The notes beneath the pieces were generated by a model, which worked only from the letters and a program-made list of their open reading frames with translations, was not told the DNA's origin and searched no databases. The position numbers and the translations under genes are program-made. From positions 1,798,001 to 1,862,000 of the forward strand of contig JBCAQO010000005.1 in NCBI GenBank assembly GCA_039111635.1: 64,000 nt of DNA, written 5' to 3'. This document shows, in pieces, positions 4,368 through 61,466 of the stretch; position 1 is the stretch's first letter; every line of letters begins with the position of its first letter. The DNA is from Heterobasidion occidentale. Taxonomy: Eukaryota; Basidiomycota; Agaricomycetes; Russulales; Bondarzewiaceae.

Positions 4368-4467
4368 NNNNNNNNNNNNNNNNNNNNNNNNNNNNNNNNN
4401 NNNNNNNNNNNNNNNNNNNNNNNNNNNNNNNNNNNNNNNNNNNNNNNNNNNNNNNNNNNNNNNNNNN
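4368..4467. other. Assembly gap (100 N)
   Basis: Exactly 100 unknown bases, the usual placeholder for a scaffold gap of unknown length. The first HxS motif and the N-terminus of USB1 should lie here. Confidence 0.98.
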
Positions 4468-27742: not shown

Positions 27743-28660
27743 GTCCTCGATGCTGGGGATTTCGAATGCCTCCACGAGTGTCTTATATACATGACTTCCG
27801 AGCTTCTTCGAAAGTACACACGGTGTGAAGCTCTTGGTTGCGAGGGAATCAGGCGGACCGGCCCCAATCGGCAATAAGACAGTAGGAATGGCCGTTAGCT
27901 GAGTGCTGACTGTGTTGAACGACGACTTCATTTACTTGCCACGGACAGGAGCTCCAAAAGCAAGCTTGCGGAGCTCGGAACCAAGTTGGGTATATGAGAG
28001 TTAGTTAATGGGTGCGGCAGAGCGAATCGCAGCTGTAGAGCCGTCCAGTGTCCCGTGGTGTGAGAGGGGGGTCCGGGGAAGATGGCTTGGCGTAACTCAG
28101 AGGACAGTTTGTAAGACGCGATGGGAATTTGAAGCCTTCTCTTGCCGGAGCAGCCTGCAGATACTCGCATCGTTGTAATCTCAGAGCCCAGGGGATTCAA
28201 GATTAGCTCAAGCCTTAATGACTCTATAAAAAGTATCGCTCGTGGTACACCGGGTGATTGAAAACTGGTGCTCGAACCTCAGCAGTCCTGAGAAGATATA
28301 TCATTGGTGGTATTCGTCAATGATCTTATGACCTTACCTAGGTGCTACACTAAAATACTCAAGAGGGTCATGCTCCAAAGCAATGCGATATTGAATGTGA
28401 GCGATCCGAGTCCAAGAGCGGTCTGCAAGGCATACACTAGGCTCGGACACAGCCGGTCATTCCCAATTCCGCTGCTCCGCTTAAGCTCCGAGCCAGCTCG
28501 GCTTTCCCGGCCGTAACGACTCCGACGAAAACGCGCCGTGGCCTTTCAATGCCCGCTTGGCCTATTCCGCTTGGTAAGCACGAGGCTAGGCATACACGTG
28601 TAACTTACATGTGTCTGTGGGAAAGACGTGGGAAAAAGTCTTCTCTGCAGTTCCTGGAGA
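27743..28660. other. Promoter of the PEBP gene and unannotated flank of the Helitron
   Basis: No gene recognised. The sequence is moderately GC-rich up to 28660 and turns AT-rich inside the Helitron. Confidence 0.4.
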
Positions 28661-28686
28661 CGAGCTCCGACCCGTCGCTTCGCGAC
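28661..28686 (-). repeat. Helitron 3' terminal hairpin
   Basis: A perfect 5-bp stem with a 3-base loop at 28674-28686, followed on the minus strand by 13 bases ending in CTCG at 28661. Position, order and the GC-rich stem match the family's termination signal. Confidence 0.65.
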
Positions 28687-29085
28687 TCTTACGCAGTGCT
28701 GATTATTAGTTTTGTGGGGTTAGGGCTTATTTCGATATTTTGGAGTTTGCCATAAGTAGTTAGATGCCTGCCCTAAATTAAATGTCCAGTGTGACCATCA
28801 TGATTGAGAGCAAGCATATTCTACATTATAGAGCAATTTTGTGAACAAACAGATAACAAATGAGGAGAAATGGTAAAGTAAAGTTTAGACTTGAGGCCTT
28901 GAGGGTGTTCTTCTAAGAAAGCACATGAGCAATTGAATTTTGAATAATTTGGCACATACCATTGAGAACTTTTAGAACTCTGTTGAGGAGTTTTGAGATT
29001 TTGAGGGAAGAGGTTGCATCTGAATAAGAAATTGCTGGTTAATCATTGAAACACATAGTTTAAGAAAGCATGAACTTGCCAAACA

Positions 29086-31419
29086 TTAAATCAGGTTTGC
29101 CAAGACTTCAGGATAGACAATGTTTATAGTCTTTGTGTCCTCGCATTCCTCAGGGAATAAAACCTTGATTCTCTCACTGGATGTGCAGCGTGATAATGCG
29201 ACATAGAGTTGGCCATGTGAAAACACCGAACTGCGTAGGTCGATACCAACATTTGAAACTGATTGACCTTGGGCTTTGTTAATTGTCATAGCAAATGCAA
29301 GCCGAATGGGAAATTGACGGCGGGAAAGAGGAACAGGCATGTCTTCTGCTGATGGTTCAATAGTGAGTCTAGGAATAAACGCAGTCTCCCCAGCATGCTT
29401 TCCACCCAAGATTCGGCATTGTAAAACCCGAGGCCTAATGTCTGTAAGGATCATCCGTGTGCCATTGCAAAGACCACTTGGCTGGTCGATGTTTCGTAAA
29501 AGCATCAGAGGGCAGCCAGGTTTGAGTTTGAGGTGTGCAAGTGGCAACCCTGACACATTGAGAGAGTTGAGGTATTCTATAGGGTAATCCTGTGTGACTC
29601 CAACCACCTTATCCACCGACATCAATGTAGACTCTTCTCCAGGGAACCTTGTCAAAGTGTCATGGTTGATCTGATCCACTACATCATTGGTTGTTGAGAG
29701 AATAGTGCGCTCTTGAAAATAACCATCTGGGTTTGGTCCCACTTGGATGTCTGGGTAAAGATGGTGGATCAATGACTCCAATGTGTTTTGCTCCAACCGC
29801 AAATTTTGTGGAAGAGATATTGACTTGTCTTCTGGAAGATTATGACCTGCGCCGACCTCTAAAAGCCAGTTTGCGAATCCTTGACTTTCTGGAGTTTGAT
29901 CCAAACGCATGTTTTGGGTTAGATGATATAAATGGATTGAACTCCACAAATGCGATCGGCGAAGGGAAGCATTAATGATCTGTTCCCTGGATCCTCTGGG
30001 AACAACCAGAAGGACCTGTCGGAAGTCTCCACCAAATAAAATGGTAATTCCTCCAAAGGGCAGGGCCTTCTCCATCAAATCTTGCAGTGTACGGTCCAAA
30101 GCCTCGATGGCATGCCGATGCTGCATTGGCGCTTCGTCCCAAATAATGATACCGGTCTGGCGAAGTACATCATGAAGGTCTGAATTTTTCTGAATTCTGC
30201 AAGTGGAAGCTTCATATATGGGGATTGGAATGTGAAAACGTGAGTGAGCAGTACGGCCACCATCTAGAAGTAGAGAGGCAATCCCAGATGAAGCAACACA
30301 TAAGGCCACTTTGCCCATAGAACGGGTGGCAGCTGCAATAGTGTTGCAGACATATGTTTTTCCACATCCACTGGCGCTGTGAAGAAAAAAGGTGTGACCA
30401 TGGTCATAAGTGACCGATTGCATGATGCCATTAAAAGCAGCCGCTTGTTCCTCGTTGAACCGTTCTCTCCGTTCCTCAACCTCTAAAGCCAGTTCTGGCA
30501 TGTCGTAATTTAGCTGCTCCTGAAGCAAAAGATTGTTTTCTACCATCACCCAGTCCTTTTGAGGAAGTGGCATTGGTGGAAAGCTTGCAAGATCCTTGCG
30601 GGATTCTAGGAGGATTTTCTGTAAAAGAAATAGGCCATAATCATAAATGTCCTCCTGGGAAGGGTCCTCGTAGTTTAGGGCCTGCAATAGCATGCGAACA
30701 TCATCACATAGAGTATTACGGTGTGTATTCCATAGCTCTTCTGGAGCTGTGGGAAGGCAGAATAAGAGCAGGGTTGCAAATAGTCGACGTAGCTGACGTC
30801 CTGTCTGCATTTCGCCTGCTTCGGTTAGACATTGGTTCCACTCATTGTCATCTTCCAATAGGCCACGGGCAAGACATGCTGCCTTATAAGTGGGGTGCTC
30901 TATGCCATCAAAAGTCCTAAGGTCGCTCCATCCTTGGGCACCTTTAACCACTGTCAAGAGCATCCGGAGGTAAAAGCGCTCGCCTGCAGAAGGTGGAACA
31001 AAATACACTCGACCAATTGCAAACCCAAACTTCCGTATGCTCCATTTCCGCTTGGATGTGTCCCAGACAAACTTTTGAGGAAAATCCTGATAAGTAGTGG
31101 CTTGCGCAACTGGATTATCTTGGTTTGCCTGAAACCACTCTGTCAACTGGGTCTTTTTTGATGCCGGCCGGTCTAGCACTACTGCAGCATCATCCTCAGG
31201 ATTAAAGAAAACCTGCTGATCATCCTGTAGATGCACAGGTAGCCGATAAACTGTGGGAAGCTCTAGATGCATGCCAAATTCGAAGATGTGCCAGCATGCC
31301 TCAATAGGGCCTATGTACCGTGCGTCCACATATTCCTTGATCTCGTCCACACCTCCTACAACTTCTAGGGTTTTAGCGCGATTATGCCCTTTGTAGATGT
31401 ATTTATGGATATACTTCAC
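29086..31419 (-). pseudogene. Helitron Rep-helicase: Rep tail and PIF1-like helicase part
   Basis: 777 codons. The first residues, KYIHKYIYKGHNRA, hold the catalytic tyrosines of the HUH Rep domain. Then comes a PIF1-family SF1B helicase: Walker A LHSASGCGKTYVCNTI, Walker B GIIIWDEAPMQHRHAIEAL, GGDFRQVLLVVPRG, LTQNMRL, and the C-terminal motif AFAMTINKAQGQSVSNVGIDL with GQLYVALSRCTS. The frame opens with a GTG and is really the continuation of the upstream Rep frame; a single base is missing in an A-run near 31440. The helicase part itself is open to its natural stop (PEVLANLI). Confidence 0.92.
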
Positions 31420-32036
31420 CGCCTTGACAGAAGCACAGATTTTTCAACATTGATGTGACAGTCGTACTTTGCCAGGAGATAAGGACTATAGGGAACAACA
31501 TCTCGGTTATCCATGACAGTGCCCGATGAGACACAGGTGTGTCCATTATTTGGCCTAGCATATTGTGGGTATCCATCTTCGCCATATAGTGTTTCAGGAA
31601 CAAACTCCTTGCGGTAATGCTTGGAACATTTACCATTGACCATGCAAAGAGCATGAGGCCTTTCTGGGCCACAGGGACCATGGATCATAAATTTTGTGAC
31701 AGCATTGTAGAGCATGGGATGAGCATCTTGATCTGGAAGTTGAGCAGATACTATTCTGTCCACATGTTCAGCGTTACGGATCTTGTGGTTATCATCGAGA
31801 AAGATCAGCAAATGCATGTGAGGGAGGCCGCGTTTCTGGAATTCAATTGTATAGACCATGCCGGCTAGTGTCCCAAACAGGCCATTCTTGATCTCTTCCA
31901 GCAAGGCATTTTTCTTCTGATTGAAGACACGTGCTACAATATCTGGCCTATCCGCAGCTGTTTGTCGCTTTGGTGGATTATTTGGATCGTTGTTCACAGG
32001 ACCATTTATGTTAGGTCGGAGACCTATCACGTGCAC
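31416..32036 (-). pseudogene. Helitron Rep-helicase: HUH nuclease part
   Basis: Rep endonuclease fragment that shows the HUH motif in FQKRGLPHMHLLIFL, preceded by QTAADRPDIVARVFNQKK, and the conserved GPCGPERPHALCMVNGKCSKHYRKEF. It has no ATG: the first codon of the open frame is GTG and similarity to Rep begins around residue 10 or later, so the N-terminus was lost at the junction with the LTR. The frame stops at 31416 because of a one-base shift; the catalytic tyrosine region continues in the helicase frame. Confidence 0.88.
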
Positions 32037-32039
32037 CGA

Positions 32040-32842
32040 TGCACGAAGGGGTCCCTAGGCTAAACCTCCACTGGTTCGTATAGTCGTAGACTCCAATGGA
32101 TGAAGACGATGGATCGTCTTTGGGCTCTTTCGAGGAACTCGGGGTCGCTGTCGGCTTTGTTCTCGAAGAGATTGAGAAGGTGATCTTCGAGGTCTTCTCG
32201 ATGATGAGGAGGAACCGGATGATCTTCTCCTGTCCAACAGATGACACGAGGGGGTGTCCAACTGAGAACGCGGTAGGCAGCTAGCCCGGTGTAGAAGCGG
32301 ATGAGTAGAGGGAGGGGAGGGAAGGGAGACGAGTCCAGTGCTTCGTCAGACCGTGCAAAGAGTTTCTCAGATCTGACAGAGATCACGAAGCGTGGGCTAA
32401 GAAGGTAGCCAGACGCCGGGTGCAGTGCAGAGATCGAGTGTATTACAGGTGAACGAGCTGAGCTTCTTAGAAGCTCATCTCGGCTATTTACGTACAGAAG
32501 TGTCTAGGGCAGGATCAAGATCTGGTCCGTGCGCTTCTCAGGTACCGAAGTCAATGATCGAGATCCGTAAGCTAGCATGCCTCATCGACCTGCCATGTAT
32601 CCAAATATAGTAATCCGATCACTAATGTCCATCCACATCTTCGATCGATCAAGAACCAGGAACGGGGGTCAGGAACCAATGTCTGTCCACATCAAGAATC
32701 AGGAACTAGAAGTCAGCGTTCATGCATCAGCATGTAAATGGTAGGGAGTCATGGAAAGCGGTCCGAGTCTGCAACAAGTCCGAAGCACTTGACCAGCCCA
32801 TCCATTCACGTGCGAAGCACGTGTTAGGACGCGGTCCTAACA
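32040..32842 (-). repeat. 3' LTR of the Ty3/Gypsy element
   Basis: The LTR begins at 32842 on the minus strand with TGTTAGGACC, right after the purine tract AGAGAGGGGGTAG (32854-32843). Its first 37 bases form two hairpins: GTTAGGAC-CGC-GTCCTAAC and CACGTGC-TTC-GCACGTG. The low-coordinate end is placed near 32040, where Helitron Rep similarity starts, but the exact CA end and target duplication could not be fixed. ACTATATTTGG near 32610 may be the LTR TATA box. A short internal direct repeat (CCACATC...ATCAAGAA.CAGGAA) lies at about 32632-32712. Confidence 0.72.
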
Positions 32843-32853
32843 CTACCCCCTCT

Positions 32854-34524
32854 CTATACAAGTCTTCGGCGCTTGGCGGGTGCACCGATGGTGGGGGCAG
32901 GTCTCCTCAGGTGGACTTCGTCGAAGGTGGGGATGTTTCGAGCGGGGTATCCGGTCCAGTTCGCGGTGTCGATTAAATGATCCAACGCCTGCTTGTGGTA
33001 TCCGTATTCTTCAGCCGTCCTATCCATCTGTAGACGAAGGGCCGGGACTGCATGCGATGCCTGTCATAGTCTTGAAGAAAGCCGCGCGCCGTAACGTCCG
33101 TTCTCTGGCGAATGCCCGTGATTGGACATCCCACGACGAGATGGCCGGCGCGTCCACATTCCCAGCAGTTACGAGTGGCGGGGTCGGTGGGTGGAGAAGG
33201 CGGGAGAGTAGGCGGGTTAGGCCAGATGTTTTCGGAGTCCAGTGCGTCTGCAGGCCATCCTTCTTCAGTTGCGACAGGAACGTCCGGCGACTGGGGGAGG
33301 CTTCGTCGACAATGATAGGAGCGGTGATGTTGTCGCCGAGTAGGGGGGGGATGGGGGACACAGCAGGGGGTGACGGGGGTGGTACCGGTAGCGGCCGAAG
33401 TACCTGGCGATCCGGACGACTTGTTCGGGGTCGTAAGGGGGACTGGTGGGTCGCGTGAATTCGGCGGTCTCCTCGTCGGTGGGCTGAAAGGGGTTTACCG
33501 CCGGGAGATCGGACTCGGCATTGACCGGGGGATCGACTGTCATGGGTTCCTCAGCGTCGATCTGGTGAAACCCCTGTTCCTGCATATCCGGTTTGGTCAT
33601 AACCCAGGGCCTAACGTTATCCTCCGGGGTACATCCGCCAGGCCAGTAGCACGCAATGGGGTGAACCCCTCGACTGTTAAGCGGGAAGGAGTGGGTCGGC
33701 AGTAGCCCTTTAGGGACATACTCTTCGATCTCCAGACGTGCTCCATTATGTCCTGCGAATCGGAACCAGCGGATCGTGTTTTCCTTGTAGCGGATTCGAG
33801 CCAGTACGTCGAGCCAGGCGGGTATGGAGTGCGCCTGTATGAGGATGGAGCTGGTGGTAAATATCCCTCCCAGTCGGAAATTGACCATGTCGTTGCGGAT
33901 GGCGGGGAGATTGATCAACCCTTTCATGCGGTAGGAGGTGACGGTGAGGTTGGCGAGGAGGATGGCTTGGGTCTGATTGAGTGGTCCAGAGAAAACCTGA
34001 TAGGCTTGCGCCCAGACTGCCTGCTGTAAATAGAAAAGGAATGCACGAGGGTTCCTCAAGCCAGGCTGGTTCAGAATGATAGGGGCTTCATCCTCGGCGA
34101 GTGTGAGGTGGTAGATGCTATTATTCGTCGTTAGGTCCTGGTAGAGACGGATGTCGTGAAGGGGATTGGGTATGGCGCGGATTCGGATGCGAGGGTTTTC
34201 GTTGTGAATGGCGAAAGCCAACGGAGGAACGGCGATGTGGGGGTTTGGCATTTCAGCCGGGAAACGGGGAATAACAAACTCAGTAAGGGGATCCGCGACC
34301 GGGACGCCTTCCGAGGGGATGTCATCCTCGCTGTCGTAATCCGAGTCAGTGTCGTCAACGAGCGTAGGCGTGGTAGTGGGCGGGGAGATGGTGCGAAGGA
34401 TGAAGGGGTTGGGGGAGGAGGTGTTGGAGGCGTGAGGGGAAGTGGTAGCGGAAGACATTCTGATGTTGCTAAGAATATAGCGGGGGGAGTTGTGTAAGAA
34501 GAGGTGAGTGGGGGCAAAGGACAT
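32854..34524 (-). CDS. Extra Gag-like gene with CCHC zinc knuckle (ORF3) between integrase and 3' LTR
   Basis: A 419-codon frame starts at 34524 (MSFAPTHLFLHNSPRY; a second Met in better context is 22 codons on) and stops at 33265. The N-terminus is Ser/Thr/Pro-rich and acidic (DDTDSDYDSEDDIPSEG). The middle is a folded-looking, Gag-capsid-like helical stretch (FLFYLQQAVWAQAYQVFSG, NLPAIRNDMVNFRLGG). After a C-run near 33345 the coding potential moves to other frames. It continues through NCWECGRAGHLVVGCP, a perfect CX2CX4HX4C nucleic-acid-binding knuckle at 33167-33126, and then RTAEEYGYHKQALDHLID, to a basic end PAKRRRLV with a stop at 32854, eleven bases before the LTR. At least three one-base shifts are needed to join the parts. 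The protein is not one I recognise; the element already has a normal Gag, so this is a second one or an accessory nucleocapsid-like protein. Confidence 0.62.
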
Positions 34525-34577
34525 TCGAGTTATAGCTGGGATGCTGAGGAATGTCTCTGTTCGATACAGGGTGTCTT

Positions 34578-34960
34578 TTATACGACGGAGGAGACGCCAA
34601 TGGTGGCAGCCGCGTGAACGGATCCGAGGACAAGGGCGATGGCGATGGAGACGGCGGTGAGAGCAAGAGTCGCGACGACGGTATAAACGGCTACTGTAGA
34701 CAGAGTGGGGTCGAAAGGGGTCATCGACGTTTGCCTGGCCATGCCAATCCTCGGTTGGTCTGCTTTTGTAGCTCCTGGTATGCTTGAGTCCGCCAATTAG
34801 AGTTGTCCGATCGCTTCTGCTGTGGCTTTGATCGAGACGAATCTATATTGGGCTTCTTTAGCTGCGCTTCTCGATCGTTGATCGCCGGTGGTGGCACTTT
34901 TGATCGAGGAACCAGGGGCGGCCTCTTTAGCTGCGTCATTCGTTTGTTGATCTCTTCCAT
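34578..34960 (-). other. Two small open frames between integrase and ORF3
   Basis: 34960-34721 encodes 79 residues rich in Lys/Arg/Gln (MEEINKRMTQLKRPPLVPRS...), starting just past the pol stop. 34796-34578 encodes 72 residues with one strongly hydrophobic segment (VAVYTVVATLALTAVSIAIA) that could span a membrane. They overlap in different frames and either could be a leader of ORF3 or meaningless. I see no homology. Confidence 0.3.
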
Positions 34961-34974
34961 GATCTGGGGGATAG

Positions 34975-37110
34975 CTAATCCTGTAGCGAGAAGCTTCTTT
35001 CCGATCGGATGCTTCTCGAGCTCTTTCTGATTTGATCTTCTTCGGCTACTCTGTTGAGTTCTAATTCGATCACCAGGGCCAGAATGGAGGCTTCCATTCC
35101 TTTGACTGCCCGAGGGTGCCGGCGGTAGAAATCCTTTATGGCTTCTTGTGCGTTAGTGACGTTTGCCGCGGCTTCCCAAGAGTTGTCCGATTCCGGGTAG
35201 CCTTTCCATTTGATCAGGTACTGCAGGATCTTCCATCGTCCGAAGCGCCTAGCTCCGACAATGGCTTCGACTTCGAATTCTTCTTGCCCTTCGATCAGGT
35301 CCGGAGCCGGTTTAGGGTAGTTCGGGCCATAGACTTCGTTTTCCTTGTAGGGCGTGAGTCGACTAGCATGGAAGACGTCGTGAATGCGCTTCCAGCTGTT
35401 GGGCAGTTTCAACCTGAAGTTGACATTTCCTATGGTGTCAGTGATTTCAAATGGCCCAAAGCGTTTGGGTCTCAGTTTCTCTGATGGGTGATCGGTGTGG
35501 ATGTTCTTCCCATCAAGCCATACTTGATCTCCTTTCTTGAAAGGTGGCAGGTCCGTTCCGAAACGGTCGTGCTGGATCCTCATGGCTTCGGCTGCAATTT
35601 CGAGGCTGGCTTGTGCTTCCTTCCTAGCACGTTGCAGAGCTTCGAGGCGAGCGTCGGCGGTGGGGACATTCGTGTTTCCGATGATGGCTGGGTAAGCCCG
35701 TGGTTGATATCCGTGGAGAAGTTCAAATGGTGACTTCTGCGTGGCTGAGTGCTGATGGGTGTTGTGGGCATATTCCGCATAAGGGATTAATCCGGCCCAA
35801 TCGTCTTGTGAAGAGCTGCAGAAAGCTCTGAGGTATTGTTCTAATTCCTGATTCATTCGTTCAGTAGCACCGTCTGTCTGTGGGTGATAGGCTGTGCTTA
35901 AAGCAGATTTGATTCCTAATTCTTTGAGCAGGGCTTGCGCTACTTTTGAAGCGAATTGAGTTCCTCTATCAGATATGATTTTATCTGGCAGCCCATAGCG
36001 TCTCCAGGTGTTTTCTAACAAGATTTTGGCCGTTCCATCAGAGTCGATAGTCTTTAGGCATGGTGTTATTACTGCCGTTTTGGTGAATCGATCGGTTACT
36101 ACGTGTAGTGAGTCGTATCCGTTTGATTCTGGTAGATCTGTAATAAAATCCATGGTTATTGTTCCGAAGGGTCGATCTGGGATTTCTGTCGGTTGTAGGG
36201 GTACCATGGTAGGATGTGTGTCGTTCTTGGTGGATTGACAGATGGCGCATCCTTCCACATATTGGTGAACTGTGTTTGATATTCCTGGCCAAGTAAATTC
36301 TTGTCCGACTAAGGCTAGAGTTCCTCTTTGTCCTGGATGTCCTGCTGCTAGATTGTCATGGTTTAGTTTGATGATATCTTGACGAAGTTGTTCGTTTCGA
36401 GGAACGTATATCTTTCCTCGATGAAGGACCAATCCTTCTTCTTTGTTCCATTCTTGTAAACCTTTCTTCATGTTTCGAGGTCCTAAGGTTTTAATCTTGG
36501 CTAAGGTTTCTAATAGCCATTCGTCTTTCCTGTTTTCTTCAATGATTCGTTTCCGGAGGTCTTCATCTATTATGGTAACGCCTCCTCTTCCAGTTGCCCT
36601 AATGTGAAGTATTTGATGAGGGTCCCAACTGTTGTCTGTATTAATGGCATTGATTTCTGCAAAAGGTCTTCGGATCTTTTCTGTGTTATTGAAAAGTTTG
36701 GGCTCCAAGAGCGTTTCGCCTGAATTGTCAAATTCCACCCCCTTTTTATGGTCTGGACGCCGTGACAGACCGTCGGATTTATTAGTGACTCCTGCCTTGT
36801 GCGTCAACTTGTAGTCGAAACGCGAGAGGTAGAGTGACCATCGTGCTTGTCGACGGTTTAATTTCTGGCTTGAACGGAACCATTCGAGGTTCTTGTGGTC
36901 CGTCCAAACGTCTACCGGGTGGTCGGCGCCCTCCAGATAGTGTCGCCAAGCTTCAAAAGCTCGAACGACCGCCAGCAACTCTTTATCATAGATTGGGTAG
37001 TTGCGTTCCGTTGGTGAGAGCGACTTGGAAATATAAGCACATGGTGCCATTTTCCATCTTTGGCGACTTGTGATAAAACTGCTCCGGTGGCGAAGTCGGA
37101 AGCGTCGCAT
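34975..37110 (-). CDS. Retrotransposon Pol: RNase H, integrase and chromodomain
   Basis: 711 codons. RNase H: ERNYPIYDKELLAVVRAFEA and VDVWTDHKNLEWF. Integrase zinc finger: NHDNLAAGHPGQRG with VEGCAICQSTK. DDE core: FGTITMDFITDLPES (D1), DKIISDRGTQFASKVAQAL (D2) and TDGATERMNQELEQYLRAF (E). Then the GPY/F-like region KLRPKRFGPFEITDTIGNV and a C-terminal chromodomain (AIVGARRFGRWKILQYLIKW, KGYPESDNSWEAA), which identifies a chromovirus-type Ty3/Gypsy element and would target integration to modified chromatin. The frame begins inside RNase H; the link to the reverse transcriptase needs a one-base shift around 37050. Confidence 0.95.
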   Translation of the reverse strand: MRRFRLRHRSSFITSRQRWKMAPCAYISKSLSPTERNYPIYDKELLAVVRAFEAWRHYLEGADHPVDVWTDHKNLEWFRSSQKLNRRQARWSLYLSRFDYKLTHKAGVTNKSDGLSRRPDHKKGVEFDNSGETLLEPKLFNNTEKIRRPFAEINAINTDNSWDPHQILHIRATGRGGVTIIDEDLRKRIIEENRKDEWLLETLAKIKTLGPRNMKKGLQEWNKEEGLVLHRGKIYVPRNEQLRQDIIKLNHDNLAAGHPGQRGTLALVGQEFTWPGISNTVHQYVEGCAICQSTKNDTHPTMVPLQPTEIPDRPFGTITMDFITDLPESNGYDSLHVVTDRFTKTAVITPCLKTIDSDGTAKILLENTWRRYGLPDKIISDRGTQFASKVAQALLKELGIKSALSTAYHPQTDGATERMNQELEQYLRAFCSSSQDDWAGLIPYAEYAHNTHQHSATQKSPFELLHGYQPRAYPAIIGNTNVPTADARLEALQRARKEAQASLEIAAEAMRIQHDRFGTDLPPFKKGDQVWLDGKNIHTDHPSEKLRPKRFGPFEITDTIGNVNFRLKLPNSWKRIHDVFHASRLTPYKENEVYGPNYPKPAPDLIEGQEEFEVEAIVGARRFGRWKILQYLIKWKGYPESDNSWEAAANVTNAQEAIKDFYRRHPRAVKGMEASILALVIELELNRVAEEDQIRKSSRSIRSERSFSLQD

Positions 37111-37904
37111 TCAATGCGAAACGGGTTCCTTGTGTCTGGCATAACGAGCACCGGAGATTCTGTAAATATTCGTTTTAGCGTTTGAAACGCTTCTTCGCAT
37201 GCTGGTGTCCAATCCCAGGTGCGTTCCTTCTGTGTTAGCTCAAATAGCGGTCGTGCTATTTTTGAGTAGTCTTTGATAAACCTGCGATAAAAGTTGCAAA
37301 ACCCTAAAAATGATTGCACTTCTTTGACTTTTCCCGGAGTTGGCCAGTCCATAATGCCGGCCACTTTAATCGGGTCCATTTCCAGATGTCCGTGTGATAT
37401 AACATATCCAAGGTAGTCGATTTTCTTTTTGTGGAAGTGGCATTTCGAGGGTTGTAGGTACAGATCGTTGTCCTGTAAGATCTGTAAAACCTTTCGAACT
37501 GTCTTGATGTGATCGTCCATCGTTTTAGAGAATACTAGGATGTCGTCCATATAGATTGCCACTAATCCGGCGTAGATGAGGTCTTTGAAGAGGGCGTTCA
37601 TCATAGTTTGGAATGTTGCCGGCGAGTTGGTTAATCCAAAGAACATCACCAGAGGTTCATACATTCCTAAATTGGTGACGAACGCGGCTAGTTTCTCGCT
37701 TCCTTCCTTCATGCGTACGTTGTTATATCCTGTATCGACATCCATTAGTGAAAAGTATACGGCTTCGGCTAGAAGGTCCAGTAATTCTTGAATGATCGGC
37801 AAAGGGTACTTGTTCTTGATTGTTATTTCATTGAGTTTGCGATAATCCATTACTGGTCGTAGTTTCCCGTTCTTTTTCTTGATGAAGAAGAATGGGGATG
37901 CCAT
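36912..37904 (-). CDS. Retrotransposon Pol: reverse transcriptase
   Basis: 330 codons with RT fingers/palm motifs: SPFFFIKKKNGKLRPVMDYR, LMDVDTGYNNVRM, FFGLTNSPATFQTMMNALF, catalytic AIYMDDILVFSKT (YMDD-type), LGYVISHGHLEMDP, GFCNFYRRFIKDYSKIA, and the start of RNase H (FRIECDASDFATGAVLSQVA). After about 37050 the frame is wrong, and the remaining RNase H continues in the overlapping integrase frame. Upstream, the join with the protease frame near 37930 is also out of phase. Confidence 0.93.
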   Translation of the reverse strand: MASPFFFIKKKNGKLRPVMDYRKLNEITIKNKYPLPIIQELLDLLAEAVYFSLMDVDTGYNNVRMKEGSEKLAAFVTNLGMYEPLVMFFGLTNSPATFQTMMNALFKDLIYAGLVAIYMDDILVFSKTMDDHIKTVRKVLQILQDNDLYLQPSKCHFHKKKIDYLGYVISHGHLEMDPIKVAGIMDWPTPGKVKEVQSFLGFCNFYRRFIKDYSKIARPLFELTQKERTWDWTPACEEAFQTLKRIFTESPVLVMPDTRNPFRIECDASDFATGAVLSQVAKDGKWHHVLIFPSRSHQRNATTQSMIKSCWRSFELLKLGDTIWRAPTTR

Positions 37905-37947
37905 GTGCGATTTGGATTCTCTGATGAATCCTTCTGGAGGTTTTCGT

Positions 37948-39111
37948 CTATGAATTTCTTGAGTTCCACTTGCTCTCCAGGCTAAGACTGTATAGCTTGG
38001 GTTTGAGCGAGTGATCCATTCCTTCCTTGATCTCTATTTTGTGATCCCAAGGTCGAGAGAGCGGTAGCTGTCCCTTTGGTCGACCTTCGAAAACCTTCCT
38101 ATAATTCCAGTATTCCTTCGGCACTATTTCTTCGAAGGATAGTTCGGGTTTCCCTTTGGCGGCTTCTTCTGCCAGTCTTTGTGAGTTGGTGTGCTTTGTT
38201 TGTTTTCCTGTCGGTGCTTTGACAGGTTTGCTTCCTTGAGCCGGTGTATTGGCATATGGAAGTTCCGTGGTTTCGACGCGATGTATGTCGACACCTTCTT
38301 CGGAGTCGTTGTATAATTCCAGTGCCTGTAATGTTCCCGTATCCAGGCATCTAACAAGATAGACTCCATCTTCTTCAAGATCCTTGGAGGGAAGTGCCGG
38401 AAGTCCGTCACCGTCCTCCGGAACGTCTTCTTCAGCCCATGTCGGAACCTTATAATTTTTGGTTCGGGCCTTCAGACATTCAGCATTCAACCTTCGAGTT
38501 GTGAACTCCGGACTTGTAGGTATTGTCCGCGGATGTGGTACTGTGGTGTTTCCCACTTTCCGGCCTAGTACTGCTTTTCCCGGCTTTTGCACTGGTATTG
38601 AGTAGTCGCCCGTTTGCGGTACTGTTTCCATGCGCCGTATGCTTGGTTTAGGACGTCCTGGTTTTCTTGTAGCTCTTTTAGCTTTTACCGGTCCTCCTTT
38701 TATTTGGCAGGAGGGCGGGCATCTGGTAAAGTGTAGCCCGTAGGCATGCCAGTCGACTTCTGGGTTATGTTCTAATAACCAGTCGGTTCCTAAAATGACG
38801 TCTTCTTTTCCTATTTCCGCAATATAGAATCTTGCTGATTCTGTATGCGACCCCCCTTTTTCGCCTAGAACCTGTAGTTTGAGGTTGGCGAATCGTGTAA
38901 TAGGTCCTCCCTTGAACTCGGTGTTCTGGACCGTACTGACTGGGATAGGGGTGGGGGTTTTGTGTGTAGTGATTCGATGTGCTTCTACGAAGCGAGGGTG
39001 CATGAAGATTCCGGTGGCTCCACTGTCCACTAGTGCCTGTGTAGCAGCTTTTCTATTCTTGCCTATGAGCATCGTTTCGAGTCGGAGGGATGGTGCACCA
39101 TGTGATTTCAT
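37948..39111 (-). CDS. Retrotransposon Pol: aspartic protease region
   Basis: 387 codons. The retropepsin motif is ATQALVDSGATGIFMHPRFV; IGKEDVILGTDWLLEHNPEVDW is the typical C-terminal part of the protease. A Lys/Arg/Pro-rich linker follows and then the conserved segment before the RT (VPKEYWNYRKVFEGRPKGQL and WDHKIEIKEG). The frame ends by a shift just before the RT. The first Met (39111) need not be the real start; translation could continue from Gag by frameshifting or readthrough. Confidence 0.9.
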   Translation of the reverse strand: MKSHGAPSLRLETMLIGKNRKAATQALVDSGATGIFMHPRFVEAHRITTHKTPTPIPVSTVQNTEFKGGPITRFANLKLQVLGEKGGSHTESARFYIAEIGKEDVILGTDWLLEHNPEVDWHAYGLHFTRCPPSCQIKGGPVKAKRATRKPGRPKPSIRRMETVPQTGDYSIPVQKPGKAVLGRKVGNTTVPHPRTIPTSPEFTTRRLNAECLKARTKNYKVPTWAEEDVPEDGDGLPALPSKDLEEDGVYLVRCLDTGTLQALELYNDSEEGVDIHRVETTELPYANTPAQGSKPVKAPTGKQTKHTNSQRLAEEAAKGKPELSFEEIVPKEYWNYRKVFEGRPKGQLPLSRPWDHKIEIKEGMDHSLKPKLYSLSLESKWNSRNS

Positions 39112-39232
39112 TTCCGAAGATACAATACATCTGGATGTCCATGCTCTTGGTCAGCATCTTTACTGGCCAGAGGAGCGTACCGATTTCCTGCAAGAATCCT
39201 TCTCTCCACATCCGCTGCCGATGGGAGAGGCC

Positions 39233-40470
39233 TTAAAAATTCTTCGAGTCGCTAAAGGCTCGAACTTCCTCGATTTCTTCCATGCTGAGTCCCATCATCA
39301 TCTGGCGGATGTGGTTGACTCTGTTTTTTCCTTCTTCGATGTCTTCATCGTCGAATTGTCCTTCGTCCATTTCTGCTTCGCGCACAGGTCTGCGACGAGG
39401 GGGCTGGAATCTTCTCTTGGGTCGAGAAGGACAGTTGCGCGCCATGTGCCCGGGTTTCTTGCAAAAGAAGCACTTTCCTTCTTTGGCAAGTCGATCTCTC
39501 TCCGCTGGGGTAAGCTTCTTGAAGCGAGTTCGGACAGCATCGGCCTCCATTTCCGCTGCGTCTACGTCCATAGGTTCGTATTGGGGCTCCCTATCGTGCC
39601 GTGGGGGTGCCCTTTCGTCGTAAAACGTACGCGGAGTGTAGATTTGGAATTTTCCTTTTCGGAGGTCGTATGCTCGGTCCCTTGCGATGCGCATCCTTTC
39701 GTGTTTCTTGGCCTTCTCGACTAGTTCTTCCCATGTCCCGTCTGTAGAGGGATCTTCATAAATTCCTTTTGCCAGCTCCCACTTGAGTCCTCGCAGGAAG
39801 TGGGTTTTCTTGGTTTCTCCGTCTACACCAGCAAGTGCCGCGAGCTGTTTCAAAACAGCTGAAGGTAGGTGTTAAACGATTCCTTTCCTTGATTGACTCG
39901 GGCCAGTTTGTCGCGAGCATCGGCTTCCTTGTTGAACTCCTCGAAGTCGGTGGCTATCTTTTTGCGGACAGATGTGAAGCCGACCGTGTCTGCCAAGTGT
40001 ATCTGTTCCAATCCTTCAGCGTGTTCCTGGCCTGAGTAAAGTTCTTGCCCATATCCCTGCTGAGCCTTCCTTCATGTACGATAGAGCGTAAGCGATTTTT
40101 GCGAATTCGTTCGCATAATCCTTCTTCCTAGCCAGGAACATCAGATCGATTTCGTGGAGGAATTGCTCGGTTCGTTTTCTGTTTCCACTGAAGGTGGTGG
40201 GTTTGGACATAGCTGGTCCCTTGGACTCATTACTTCCAGTATCTGCCGACATTGTATCGGGCGGGGCTCTGGATCGTCAGGTGGTTCCGGATTTCCACTT
40301 GGTGCTTCAAAATTACTCCGGTTCGGGGACAAACTCCGGTGTTGTGGCTCGGAAGTCTTCTTGGGGAGTGTTTCTTGTAAGGGGGATGCAGCGGGCGTGT
40401 TTCTTCTAGAGATTCGACTTCCACTGGCTGTGCTCTGGGTAGAGTATGTATGTGCGTCTTGGCGAGTCAC
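39233..40470 (-). pseudogene. Retrotransposon Gag, broken
   Basis: Three frames carry the parts. 40470-40141 encodes a Ser/Pro-rich N-terminus (PPDDPEPRPIQ). 40252-40016 encodes KPTTFSGNRKRTEQFLHEID and FAKIAYALSYMKEGSAGIWA. 39853-39233 encodes the capsid end (ETKKTHFLRGLKWELAKGIY) and the knuckle CFFCKKPGHMARNCPSRPKRR, with a clean CX2CX4HX4C. In between, ATDFEEFNKEADARDKLARV is readable in another frame near 39950. Single-base shifts separate them. A 148-codon frame at 40976-40530, reaching the gap, may be a further Gag leader or a 5' untranslated region. Confidence 0.8.
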
Positions 40471-41003
40471 GATGCCTATTTGCGGTGATTAGGCTTGTCG
40501 AAGGTCTTCTTGCGACGTAGTCCTCGACCTTAACAAGGTGAGGTCGGGGCGCTCCTGGGACTGTTTTTTCTGCCCAAGTGCGTATTCGTATCTGCTTTCT
40601 CCTCGTTTTGTGAAGAATCGGTGAGGATGCCCGCGTTAGTAGAAGTGTTTCTTCTTTCGTGTAATAAAGTTGTCTTTTGTCGACGTCTTCGGGTAAGCTC
40701 CCAGTTAGACTTCTGCTGGTCTGTTCTGTAGCCGGGAGGAATCCCGCTGCGGACTTCGTCCGTTGTTCTTATTCTTGAAGAAGAAGGGTACTCCTGTCTT
40801 CTTCCGGCCTGTAGTGCTTCTGTAAGTCTGGGTCCTTTGATAATTTCGTTGATGGAAATATCAATTGGTCGATGAGCTGGATGATCTCGGAGAATAGTGT
40901 GCCGAGATGAAGGTTCGGAGATGATAAGTGTTTGTGGCGAACTCTCCTCTTCTGACAATAAAAACGATCCCTTCAATTCTAGTTCGGACTGGCGGGGAGT
41001 TAG

Positions 41004-41103
41004 NNNNNNNNNNNNNNNNNNNNNNNNNNNNNNNNNNNNNNNNNNNNNNNNNNNNNNNNNNNNNNNNNNNNNNNNNNNNNNNNNNNNNNNNNNNNNNNNN
41101 NNN
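41004..41103. other. Assembly gap (100 N)
   Basis: Placeholder gap. It separates the 5' side of the Ty3/Gypsy element from a DEAH helicase that starts in mid-gene, so it must hide the 5' LTR and the 5' part of the helicase, or mark a misjoin. Confidence 0.98.
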
Positions 41104-43282
<2,179 letters not shown>

Positions 43283-43600
43283 CTCGCCGTGCACTCGTCT
43301 TGCGTTGCAAATGAGCAATACAGTGGTGTAAGCTGCCAATGCATGAACACATTCTGTTCACACCGACGTTATTCTTCTACCCTTGTTCGTTCCCACCTGC
43401 CTACAACTCACAGCCGGCGAAGTGCTGATTGAACATCGGGATTCAGTCATCCCGTGTGATGATTAGCTTCTCTTCCATTGAACTGCTTCTTCGGCATGAG
43501 ACGGTTTTAGTGAGGGATATATGAATGTCTGATTCCAACTGCGGGTTTAGAACGACCCGAGGCTCTGACCGTCCTTCTGCCATCTACCCCGTTCATATCC
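43283..43600. other. Intergenic, promoter of the epoxide hydrolase
   Basis: 318 bases between two tandem genes; no clear motif beyond a possible CT-rich leader. Confidence 0.4.
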
Positions 43601-45133
43601 ATGGCCAAAGCCTACAAGATCGCTGTTACTGACGAAGATCTTGCGTTGCTCAAGCGAAAGCTGGAGTTATCTCGGTTTCCGGACGAACTCGAACAGGCAG
43701 GCTGGGACTATGGTGCTCCCTTGACAGACATCAAACGGCTAGCAGCCAGGTGGAGGGAGGGTTATGACTGGAGGAAGTATGAGGCAGACTTGAATGTGCT
43801 CCCTATGTTCACGAGAGATATCGTCGTTGACGATCATGGCTCTATCAACGTTCACTATGTGCACCAACAAAGCATGGTCGAGGGTGCCATACCTCTCCTA
43901 TTCGTCCACGGATGTGCGTAACAGCAATTGCCCTCTTATCCTTTTTGTTGACGTGTACTGTACTTCAGGGCCCGGGAGCTTCATCGAAGTTCGAAAGATC
44001 CTTCCACTTCTAACAGCGTCGTCGCCTGATCACCCAAGCTTCCATGTAGTCGCCCTTAGCTTACCAGGCTATGCGTTTTCAGAGGCACCACGGAAAAAGG
44101 ATTCTCGGGCCCTCAGTATGCGGAGGTATGTCTTGGTTCGCGCAGACTGCTTGCTGCCGATTTATGATTGTGTAGCTGGGGCATAAGTTGATGCTTGCCC
44201 TTGGATACGAAGAGTATGTCACTCAAGGTGGGGATTGGGGGCACTTCGTGAGTTCGCCTGCAATACCTATCCACGTATACTAGTCCTGACCGACCAGCAT
44301 AGATAACTCAGATTATGGCGTTTACATATGGGCCCAAGAGCATCAAAGCTTGGCATACCAATCTCCCTTCGTAAGTCGACGGCCTCAGTATTCTATTGCT
44401 TGCTCAATTATGCACTCTATGTCCTCAGGGCATTGTCACCACCACGTCTATTTTCTAATCCTCGTGCTTTCCTATCTCATCTGTTTTCTCGCTACACGCC
44501 CCAGGAGCGCTTAGGTCTCCAACGTGTTGCATGGTTTCTATCAGATGGACAGGGATATATGCAACAGCAGTCGACGCAGCCGCAAACGCTTGGATATTCG
44601 CTCTCTGATTCTCCGATCGGCCTCCTAGCCTGGATATACGAAAAACTAGTGACTTGGACAGATGCTTACCAGTGGGAGGATGACGAAGGTAAGAATACAG
44701 CACTTCCTCCAAACAATGCAAACAATGATGTGTTTGGCCAGTGCTCACATGGGTCTCTATCTACTGGTTCTCCCGTGCTGGGCCGACCGCGGCGATCCGC
44801 ATTTATTATGAGGTCGTCAAAACCGGAGGATTTCTGGCCCCGCCTCGTCCTACGATCCCTATGGGTGTTTCTTATTTCCCAAAGGAGCTTTTTCCAGCGC
44901 CCCGAACGTCAGTCGTCCTTTCTCCCTCTGAAATTCGTCTGATCAAAAACCACACCGTCCTTGTGAACAGATGGCTGCGCATCATCGGGAACCCCGTCTT
45001 TGTAGCTTCGCATTCTGAAGGCGGCCATTTCGCCGCATATGAGAGGCCGAATGAACTAGTGGGTGACCTGCGCAAGATGTATGCGCGTGGCGGGCCGGCA
45101 TATGGCGCTGTTCAGGGCAAAGATGGTTATTGA
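43601..45133 (+). CDS. Epoxide hydrolase, microsomal/juvenile-hormone type (EHN domain)
   Basis: Alpha/beta-hydrolase that opens epoxides to diols; it is a typical partner of P450s in detoxification. Exons: 43601-43913, 43969-44125, 44176-44247, 44303-44370, 44429-44688, 44742-44907 and 44971-45133. The N-terminal EHN domain reads [20 protein letters not shown] and [20 protein letters not shown]. Core: oxyanion-hole HGWPGSF, nucleophile Asp in [10 protein letters not shown], and catalytic His in [12 protein letters not shown]. The cap region contains [20 protein letters not shown] and [17 protein letters not shown]. In exon 2 a base is missing after the A-run at about 44097: the frame reads KKDSRAL whereas the family sequence (GFSGPQYAE) lies in the next frame; adding one base makes all exon phases agree. 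The usual N-terminal membrane anchor is not seen. Confidence 0.9.
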
Positions 45134-60322: not shown

Positions 60323-61466
60323 TGTTAGGACCACGTCCTGACACGTGCTTTGCACGTGAGTTGATGGGCTGGTCAAGTGCTTCGGACGTTGATGAGCATG
60401 CACCCGCGCTAGGGTCCGAGGGAGGTATTTGGGAAGCTTTGGGGAGATACCGAACAGCGCTAGACAAATACCGAAGACGCCGACTCGCACCGAACACGGT
60501 CGGTCCCTACCCGACCGACCGCAAGCCACCGAAGGACGTTCGGCAGCACTTGGGTCAGTTCGCTTACACTTCACATACTTACCGTAACCGCACAGGAGTG
60601 TTACAATAGGTGTTTACGAGATCGGAGCCAGTATTCCGGGTCGGCCGATGTGCTCCGTGAGTCGGTCGCTCCTTATCGCTTATCTTCCCGACTTCCACAT
60701 GGTCGGTCAAATGTGATCTTGCACCATTACTTGGCCACCCTGGTCGTACGTTACTTCCTTCCTATTTTCATTGGTTCTTCAACGCCTGTTCCTGCTACCT
60801 ACGCTCGGGCGACGGATCCCGAACGGTCGGGATTTCGCCATCGCTGATTAACTTTTACCTTATCACCTTCGGAACCCATATGGACATCTCACCTACCTTC
60901 TTATCTTCTCTGTTCGCTAGGGCTTGGCGCCCAGTCGACATCTACTCTCATTTCTTGTTCAATATCTTACTTAGGGGCTCTGTTTACTATAAAAACCTAC
61001 ATACAACTCTGGAATAAACCAGCTTTCGCACCCCACAGTTCAGAGCTCATCCGCACTCGTCGCAACCATCGAAATCGTCTTCGTCGACTTCCGAAAACTT
61101 GTCATCCTCGTCGTTCGGCCTCATTCGCGTTCGTACTCGTCTCTTCGCTCGTAACCCCCGTCCTCCCTCGTATATTGTCAGAGTCCCGTGTGGCTCTTGA
61201 AGCACGTAGTTGTCGGTCGCGACACTACCTTCTCGTTACCGACCGAATCCCCGACACAACCGACCGAACGTTCGGTCGGTGTTCGGTGCAGTCCCGAAAC
61301 CGTTCGGGCGCTATAATCTCACACTCCCCGTTGCTTCTCAGTACGCCTTCAATTTCTAAAGTCATCACTAACAATTCCTTGTGTATTAGATACTAGCTCC
61401 AGCACCCCTGCATTAGAGGTTGTTTTAGTGTTGTGCTCAGCACTTAGAGCCACCTCTAGCGTATCA
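60323..61466 (+). repeat. 5' LTR of the second retroelement
   Basis: It begins TGTTAGGACC at 60323 and probably ends ...GTATCA at 61466, three bases before a TGG-starting primer-binding site. Promoter and end signals fit: TATAAAAA at 60988 and AATAAA at 61013. The terminal block folds into two hairpins: GTTAGGAC-CAC-GTCCTGAC (one non-pairing base) and CACGTGC-TTT-GCACGTG. The copy at the other end of the element lies outside the window, so the length cannot be confirmed. Confidence 0.7.

What the first reader, a model, noticed from the sequence alone, without database searches (positions are those of the whole stretch)
32854..34524. A second, CCHC-bearing Gag-like gene after the integrase in a Ty3/Gypsy chromovirus
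Seen: the element already encodes an ordinary Gag (knuckle CFFCKKPGHMARNC) upstream of Pol. Downstream of the chromodomain, on the same strand, a further ~550-codon region encodes an acidic N-terminus, a helical capsid-like middle, another perfect CX2CX4HX4C knuckle (CWECGRAGHLVVGC, 33167-33126) and a basic end (PAKRRRLV), and stops 11 bases before the LTR. Known: fungal chromoviruses normally end after integrase/chromodomain; a 3' gene there is where env or accessory genes sit in other lineages. Inference: an accessory nucleocapsid or captured Gag that could alter packaging, nuclear import or copy-number control. I do not recognise the protein.
Basis: partly seen in the sequence, partly recalled or inferred. 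Interest (0 to 1): 0.8.

Follow-up and report, generated by a model that had tools for sequence, protein, structure and literature searches.

The report
Third gene in a fungal retrotransposon
A family of jumping elements in what is probably a fungal genome carries, besides its two usual genes, a third gene for an unknown zinc-knuckle protein that selection has kept working, perhaps to handle the element's RNA or DNA in the nucleus.

Summary
After the chromodomain, a Ty3/Gypsy chromovirus carries a sense-strand third gene (ORF3, 34524-32854, minus) ending 11 bp before the 3' LTR. The window copy has three frameshifts, but intact 553-557-codon versions with the knuckle occur in 10 of 30 fetched loci; 100 places in the genome match. 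ORF3 is integral: 7 of 8 copies with both LTRs readable have matching 5-bp target duplications, and 50 of 60 same-family Pol copies were shown to have ORF3 nearby (10 unchecked). It is under purifying selection (pN/pS 0.15; Gag 0.10). Heterobasidion irregulare encodes relatives with the same architecture. A sister subfamily (78% Pol identity, 3 copies) lacks it. 'Second Gag' is not supported: only the zinc knuckle aligns with Gag, though no usable fold was obtained. No transmembrane segment. A TATAAAA box precedes the ATG in 31 of 31 copies; the C-terminus is a KRRRLV-type basic tail. Best reading: a separately expressed, nuclear, nucleic-acid-binding accessory protein, comparable in layout to Grande gene23 (motif-based inference). 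Extra 3' ORFs are known in Ty3 elements; this protein family was not described in what I could search. New variant of a known kind.

The parts
32854..34524 (-). ORF3 (third gene), broken in this copy by three single-base frameshifts; 553-557 codons in intact copies
33550..34302 (-). Conserved core of ORF3 (about residues 75-325), no known domain; pN/pS 0.09 (codons 71-200) and 0.13 (201-330)
33126..33167 (-). CCHC zinc knuckle CWECGRAGHLVVGC; in another frame than the ATG in this copy, in frame in intact copies; kept in three Heterobasidion irregulare proteins
32857..33063 (-). Conserved C-terminal part ending in the basic tail KRRRLV (NLS-like by recollection)
34576..34582 (-). TATAAAA box 58 bp before the ORF3 ATG; candidate internal promoter
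32843..32853 (-). Polypurine tract AGAGGGGGTAG between the ORF3 stop and the 3' LTR
32009..32842 (-). 3' LTR (834 bp, TGTTAGGAC...CCTAACA), 99.2% identical to the LTR of copy L016
34975..37904 (-). Pol: RT, RNase H, integrase, chromodomain; in more than one frame in this copy, and its C-terminal tail ends earlier than in other copies
37948..39111 (-). Aspartic protease region
39233..39853 (-). C-terminal part of the ordinary Gag, with knuckle CFFCKKPGHMARNC
41004..41103 (.). Assembly gap (100 N) where the 5' LTR of this copy is probably hidden

Best explanation
ORF3 is an integral third gene of this chromovirus. Shown: it sits between Pol and the 3' LTR inside paired LTRs, is open in many copies, is under purifying selection and has relatives of the same architecture in Heterobasidion irregulare. 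Inferred from motifs: it is made as a separate protein from its own internal promoter (TATAAAA box about 58 bp before the ATG), is soluble, binds single-stranded nucleic acid through one zinc knuckle, and is carried into the nucleus by its C-terminal basic tail. There it would act as an accessory nucleoprotein for the element, most likely helping its RNA or cDNA complex through the nuclear step (nuclear entry of the cDNA-integrase complex, or handling of the genomic RNA).
For: Integral: 13 copies had both ends compared; 8 had both LTRs readable, 7 of 8 with matching 5-bp target duplications and 7 of 8 with 0-3 LTR substitutions. 43 of 63 Pol copies have an ORF3 hit downstream; 4 more fetched copies (one with ORF3 inverted) and 3 more by a second query have it: 50 of 60 same-family copies. 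Open: 10 of 30 loci intact with knuckle, plus 5 of 5 chosen for length. Selection: pN/pS 0.153 over 10 intact copies (0.202 with an eleventh, L033); in 6 copies with both intact, ORF3 0.143, Pol tail 0.287. Separate expression: TATAAAA at -56 to -59 in 26 of 26 loci and within 100 bp in 5 of 5 more; a stop in the ORF3 frame within 195 bases before the ATG in 13 of 31. Nucleic-acid binding: knuckle kept in 3 Heterobasidion proteins; weak profile match to a Gag-Pol knuckle chain, 2e1x, E 0.0011. Soluble: highest 19-residue hydropathy 0.89-1.27 in three proteins. Basic tail: KRRRLV exact in 5 of the 9 aligned rows that reach the end, similar in the other 4.
Against: No fold or domain for the core. 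The knuckle scores below the Pfam cut-off (3 of 14 members at E up to 1, best 0.096), and chaperonin chains score at E about 0.01 with the same profile. One Heterobasidion protein has a degenerate knuckle and another lacks it. The TATA box could be kept by shared descent; no transcript was seen. In 18 of 31 copies the ORF3 frame stays open for 195 bases upstream, so a Pol-linked product is not excluded there. A sister subfamily lacks ORF3, so chromoviruses can do without it.
Confidence: 0.4

Rival explanations
1. ORF3 is a captured or duplicated Gag: core = divergent capsid domain, knuckle = nucleocapsid, giving mixed particles or altered packaging.
For: P/S/T-rich N-terminus, conserved middle, proline-rich linker, knuckle, basic end is a Gag-like order. 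Gag and ORF3 tail distances correlate at r 0.95 over 15 copies.
Against: Profile comparison with the element's Gag aligns only the knuckle; no retroelement capsid family found. The correlation comes from two outlier copies and falls to 0.04 without them. The AlphaFold2 models start the core with three strands, but at pLDDT 35-36 this says little.
Confidence: 0.2
2. ORF3 is a nuclear regulator of the element's expression (LTR transactivator or RNA-export factor, comparable to Tas or Rev of complex retroviruses, a comparison from recollection).
For: 3' position, candidate internal promoter, basic tail and knuckle.
Against: No established DNA-binding or activation domain found; no data on transcription.
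Confidence: 0.2
3. ORF3 limits copy number, as truncated Gag p22 does in Ty1 (recalled).
For: A separate nucleic-acid-binding protein in a family with many similar, young copies could serve self-limitation.
Against: No Gag homology beyond the knuckle through which it could poison particles; 100 matching places suggest no strong limit.
Confidence: 0.1
4. ORF3 is the C-terminal part of Pol, made by frameshifting or readthrough.
For: The ORF3 frame is open for the 195 bases before the ATG in 18 of 31 copies; the sister subfamily has a long Pol tail there.
Against: A stop lies in that stretch in 13 of 31 copies, including intact ones; the N-terminus at the ATG is shared with Heterobasidion proteins and has pN/pS 0.15.
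Confidence: 0.06
5. Env-like gene, nested second element, or chance open frame.
For: The position is that of env genes.
Against: No transmembrane segment by hydropathy; inside the element's own LTRs at a near-constant distance from Pol; purifying selection.
Confidence: 0.02

Closest known systems
Grande gene23 (maize Ty3/Gypsy, accessory gene between pol and 3' LTR)
   Same: 3' internal position, nuclear protein, own promoter (passages of PMC7264820; own promoter from the title of Gomez-Orte et al. 2013 in its reference list)
   Different: antisense to gag-pol, plant element; ORF3 here is sense and bears a zinc knuckle. Sequences not compared.
Boty/BcGypsy1 brtn (Botrytis Ty3/Gypsy)
   Same: fungal Ty3 element with an extra gene between pol and 3' LTR (passages of PMC7264820, and PMC8365987)
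   Different: brtn is antisense; the passages seen mention no knuckle. Sequences not compared.
[quoted passage not shown]
   Same: extra ORF in fungal Gypsy families (section 5 with the Figure 3 legend)
   Different: the figure is not held, so which families and where the ORF lies could not be seen
Rotifer LTR retrotransposon ORF3s (PMC5408684)
   Same: varied third ORFs besides gag and pol (passages including the abstract)
   Different: GDSL lipase, DEDDy exonuclease, env, CC and TM types; the terms 'zinc knuckle' and 'CCHC' do not occur in the text
Heterobasidion irregulare hypothetical proteins HETIRDRAFT_423610, _327052, _164543, _418337, _455599, _452968
   Same: homologous to ORF3, 39-47% identical; _327052, _164543 and _418337 carry knuckle and KRRRLV
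   Different: _423610 has a degenerate knuckle, _455599 lacks it, _452968 is a 125-residue piece; their genomic setting could not be read here
Retroviral/Ty3 Gag nucleocapsid
   Same: one CX2CX4HX4C knuckle
   Different: no similarity found elsewhere

Membership tests
Ty3/Gypsy chromovirus (the element) | RT, RNase H, integrase and chromodomain in this order; paired LTRs TG..CA | tested here: met
   domains in the window; paired LTRs in 8 of 13 compared copies
Ty3/Gypsy chromovirus (the element) | self-priming of reverse transcription (feature of the Tf1 kind, recalled) | tested here: inconclusive
   LTR motif AGCTCGTTCA in 12 of 20 5' stretches, 31 bp after a TATA-like word in 10 of them, is complementary to TGAACGAGCT at the primer site; sequence only
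Third gene (aORF) of an LTR retrotransposon | lies between the LTRs, present in most copies, conserved like other element genes | tested here: met
   10 of 60 same-family copies not checked
Gag | capsid domain homologous to Retrotrans_gag or another retroelement capsid family | tested here: not met
   by sequence and profile only; fold not resolved
Gag | CCHC zinc knuckle | tested here: met
   pattern; weak profile match; below the Pfam cut-off
Env-like protein | transmembrane segment | tested here: not met
   hydropathy scan of three proteins; signal peptide not tested separately
Accessory nuclear protein with own promoter (Grande gene23 type) | own transcript and nuclear localisation | not testable with these tools
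   TATA box and basic tail are motifs only

The most novel reading that the evidence does not exclude
A complex fungal retroelement: besides Gag and Pol it expresses, from its own internal promoter, a dedicated nuclear zinc-knuckle protein of a new family that steers its RNA or cDNA in the nucleus. The 3' slot is exchangeable between related subfamilies, the sister subfamily carrying a different, repeat-bearing Pol tail there.
Probability: 0.35. Interest if true: 0.68.

Novelty: new variant of a known kind. Interest (0 to 1): 0.52.

Why it matters
LTR retrotransposons usually manage with Gag and Pol. A third gene kept under purifying selection in a young, high-copy family, with relatives in Heterobasidion irregulare, shows that some chromoviruses profit from an accessory function. 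Because a close sister (78% Pol identity) lacks it, the pair gives a natural comparison of what the extra gene does. It also suggests an origin for several 'hypothetical proteins' of Heterobasidion.

Tried and rejected
Structure: both AlphaFold2 jobs (9 rows each) gave mean pLDDT 36.0 and 35.1; Foldseek against PDB with the second model gave 185 matches at E <= 10, none at E <= 0.001; read as no information. Chaperonin matches (E about 0.01) were taken as chance; the second nucleocapsid match there (E 0.0049) is hardly better, so the knuckle argument rests on the pattern and its conservation. Single weak Pfam hits of single members (HTH_57, PFV_capsid, DUF7577, HscB_4_cys, E 0.05-0.6, one member of 14 each) were taken as chance.

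Co-evolution of Gag and ORF3: r up to 0.98 between leader, Gag and ORF3 tail over 15 copies, caused by two outlier copies (L068, L070) and gone without them; rejected.

Homology to the 5' leader frame or to one sister Pol extension: none. Apparent short ORF3 forms of 413 and 421 codons: the two loci fetched proved to be frameshifted ordinary copies. Four same-family copies without ORF3 were fetched and all contain it, one inverted. Ten further same-family Pol copies without a listed ORF3 were not checked; one of them (C4:59940) has an ORF3 hit nearby on the other strand.

Rows dropped: 2 of 65 Pol rows (second pieces of copies already counted) before the count of 63; L033 from the main pN/pS (value with it given); 5 of 13 copies from the LTR count because one LTR was cut off, altered or not in the fetched stretch; 4 of 30 loci from the TATA count because the match did not begin at the ATG.

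Limits: the genome search scores only the best candidates, so counts are lower bounds; protein searches scored 7991 candidates only.

No listing or passage seen described this protein; most subscription papers are not in the library.

Full report
What is there. The window lies in an unnamed 45-Mb, 159-contig genome. The only named protein relatives of ORF3 are from Heterobasidion irregulare, which suggests a basidiomycete host, perhaps near Russulales (inference; the order is recalled). On the minus strand between about 41 and 32 kb lies a Ty3/Gypsy chromovirus: Gag knuckle (39853-39233), protease (39111-37948), RT to chromodomain (37904-34975). After Pol, ORF3 runs from an ATG at 34524 to a stop ending at 32854, then an 11-base polypurine tract and the 3' LTR, 32842-32009. 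No direct repeat marks a 5' LTR in 28000-44000; it probably lies in the assembly gap 41004-41103.

State of the window copy. It is damaged. Pol lies in more than one frame. ORF3 shows three single-base frameshifts against an intact relative that is 97.8% identical, and the knuckle is in another frame than the ATG. Intact natural copies exist elsewhere in the genome.

ORF3 belongs to the element. Of 63 Pol copies (after dropping two second pieces), 43 have an ORF3 hit downstream on the same strand, 453-755 bases away in 42 and 1407 in one. Of the 20 without, 4 were fetched and all hold ORF3 DNA, one inverted relative to Pol; 3 more have it by a second query (matched by coordinates); 3 are a sister subfamily at 78% identity and lack it; 10 were not checked. 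So 50 of 60 same-family copies were shown to have it and none was shown to lack it. Of 20 5' stretches fetched, 13 were compared with their 3' ends: 8 had both LTRs readable. Of these 8, 7 have identical 5-bp flanks, and 7 have 0-3 LTR substitutions over about 830 bases, the eighth 24. L016 has no LTR substitution but no matching flanks. These are young insertions of whole elements including ORF3.

ORF3 is open and selected. Among the 30 loci brought in (L009-L038, the best matches), 11 have an ATG frame of at least 550 codons, 10 of them with the knuckle (L033 has none). Five further copies, chosen because one search listed 557-codon frames, are all intact with knuckle. Over 10 intact copies (45 pairs, L033 dropped) pN/pS is 0.153; by part 0.15 (codons 1-70), 0.09 (71-200), 0.13 (201-330), 0.39 (331-450, proline-rich linker), 0.15 (451-end); with L033 it is 0.202 overall. 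The Pol tail has 0.233 in 12 copies. In the 6 copies where both are intact, ORF3 has 0.143 and the Pol tail 0.287; Gag in 8 copies has 0.096 and the protease region in 7 copies 0.103. Choosing intact copies favours low values somewhat, in my judgement not down to 0.15.

Relatives. Three database searches returned 14 proteins in all: 6 from H. irregulare and 8 from unnamed contigs; two searches scored a capped list. In the alignment the complete members share one order: an N-terminal MS....SP.YI motif, a conserved core, a proline-rich linker with SPPYDPEQ or a variant of it, the knuckle CWECGRxGHxxxxC, then a conserved C-terminal part (LRLQMDxVAEEYGYHKQA, WTGYPxRSIPT) and a KRRRLV-type end. Three H. 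irregulare proteins keep the full knuckle; P0002 has a degenerate one and P0003 lacks it. KRRRLV is exact in 5 of the 9 rows that reach the end.

What it is not. Not env: no segment reaches transmembrane hydropathy in three proteins (highest 1.27; the usual threshold of about 1.6 is recalled). Not a nested element: it lies inside the element's own LTRs, at a near-constant distance from Pol. Not shown to be Gag: profile comparison with the element's own Gag gives only the knuckle, and Pfam gives no retroelement capsid family, the knuckle itself staying below the cut-off. A capsid fold cannot be excluded, as the AlphaFold2 models failed.

How it may work. A TATAAAA box lies 56-59 bases before the ATG in 26 of 26 loci with the ATG at the expected place (4 of 30 loci were dropped) and within 100 bases in 5 of 5 more. 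In 13 of 31 copies the ORF3 frame has a stop within the 195 bases before the ATG, in 9 of them directly before it, so there the protein must start on its own; in the other 18 the frame stays open. The tail KRRRLV resembles monopartite nuclear localisation signals (recalled). The knuckle profile matches a Gag-Pol knuckle chain (2e1x, E 0.0011) and nucleocapsid chains more weakly; chaperonins reach E about 0.01 with the same profile. Together this suggests a separately expressed nuclear nucleic-acid-binding accessory protein. Promoter, nuclear import and binding are inferences from motifs.

The slot is variable. The sister subfamily (L059-L061) has a homologous chromodomain and then a Pol tail with about four 31-residue repeats (my reading of the translation) and an acidic extension, with no ORF3 likeness by DNA or by profile for the one protein compared. 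Within the ORF3 family the ORF3 core is the most divergent of eight segments (mean distance 0.136 over 15 copies, against 0.037 for protease and 0.061 for the LTR). Once two outliers are removed, distances of different segments correlate weakly (at most 0.66, between the two Gag parts), which points to frequent recombination between copies.

What is known. [quoted passage not shown] PMC2864245 (passages; section 5) marks additional ORFs of unknown function in fungal Gypsy elements in a figure I could not see. Rotifer elements carry varied ORF3s (PMC5408684, passages). PMC3248453 (passages) treats gag and pol as the usual two ORFs. Passages of PMC2774666, PMC8365987 and PMC5689174 added nothing closer. 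A sense-strand zinc-knuckle ORF3 was not described in any listing or passage I saw. Hence: new variant of a known kind.

Noticed in passing
29086-32036: Minus-strand frames that read like a Helitron (Rep and PIF1-like helicase, recalled, not tested) abut the 3' LTR at 32009; frames beyond the gap at 41104 read like a DEAH-type helicase (recalled), so the two flanks do not look like one split gene.
   Followed up: no
60323-60387: 65-bp fragment 92% identical to the start of this element's LTR.
   Followed up: no
L041 (minus) and nine other 5' stretches, about 1.3 kb between LTR and Gag: Two further overlapping frames between the 5' LTR and Gag: one of 176-179 codons open in 10 of 10 copies looked at, one of 394 codons open in 6 of 10; no Pfam match in L041. 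Possibly a spliced Gag N-terminus or another gene.
   Followed up: partly
L039-L058, LTR: Self-priming signature: AGCTCGTTCA in the LTR of 12 of 20 stretches, complementary to the primer site just after the LTR; the same motif can be read in the sister LTR of L059.
   Followed up: partly
L059, L060, L061: Sister chromovirus with about four 31-residue repeats (KKLL.AGLT) and an acidic extension after the chromodomain.
   Followed up: partly
G000:C2:169916-171121: A degenerate ORF3 that is 57% identical to Heterobasidion protein P0010 over its N-terminal two thirds, where other copies have about 39-46%: perhaps the relic of a second lineage.
   Followed up: no
L072 (G000:C12:206000-211000) and L064: Copies in which ORF3 and an LTR stand head to head with an inverted part of another copy.
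   Followed up: no
4368-4467 and 41004-41103: Two 100-N assembly gaps in the window.
   Followed up: no
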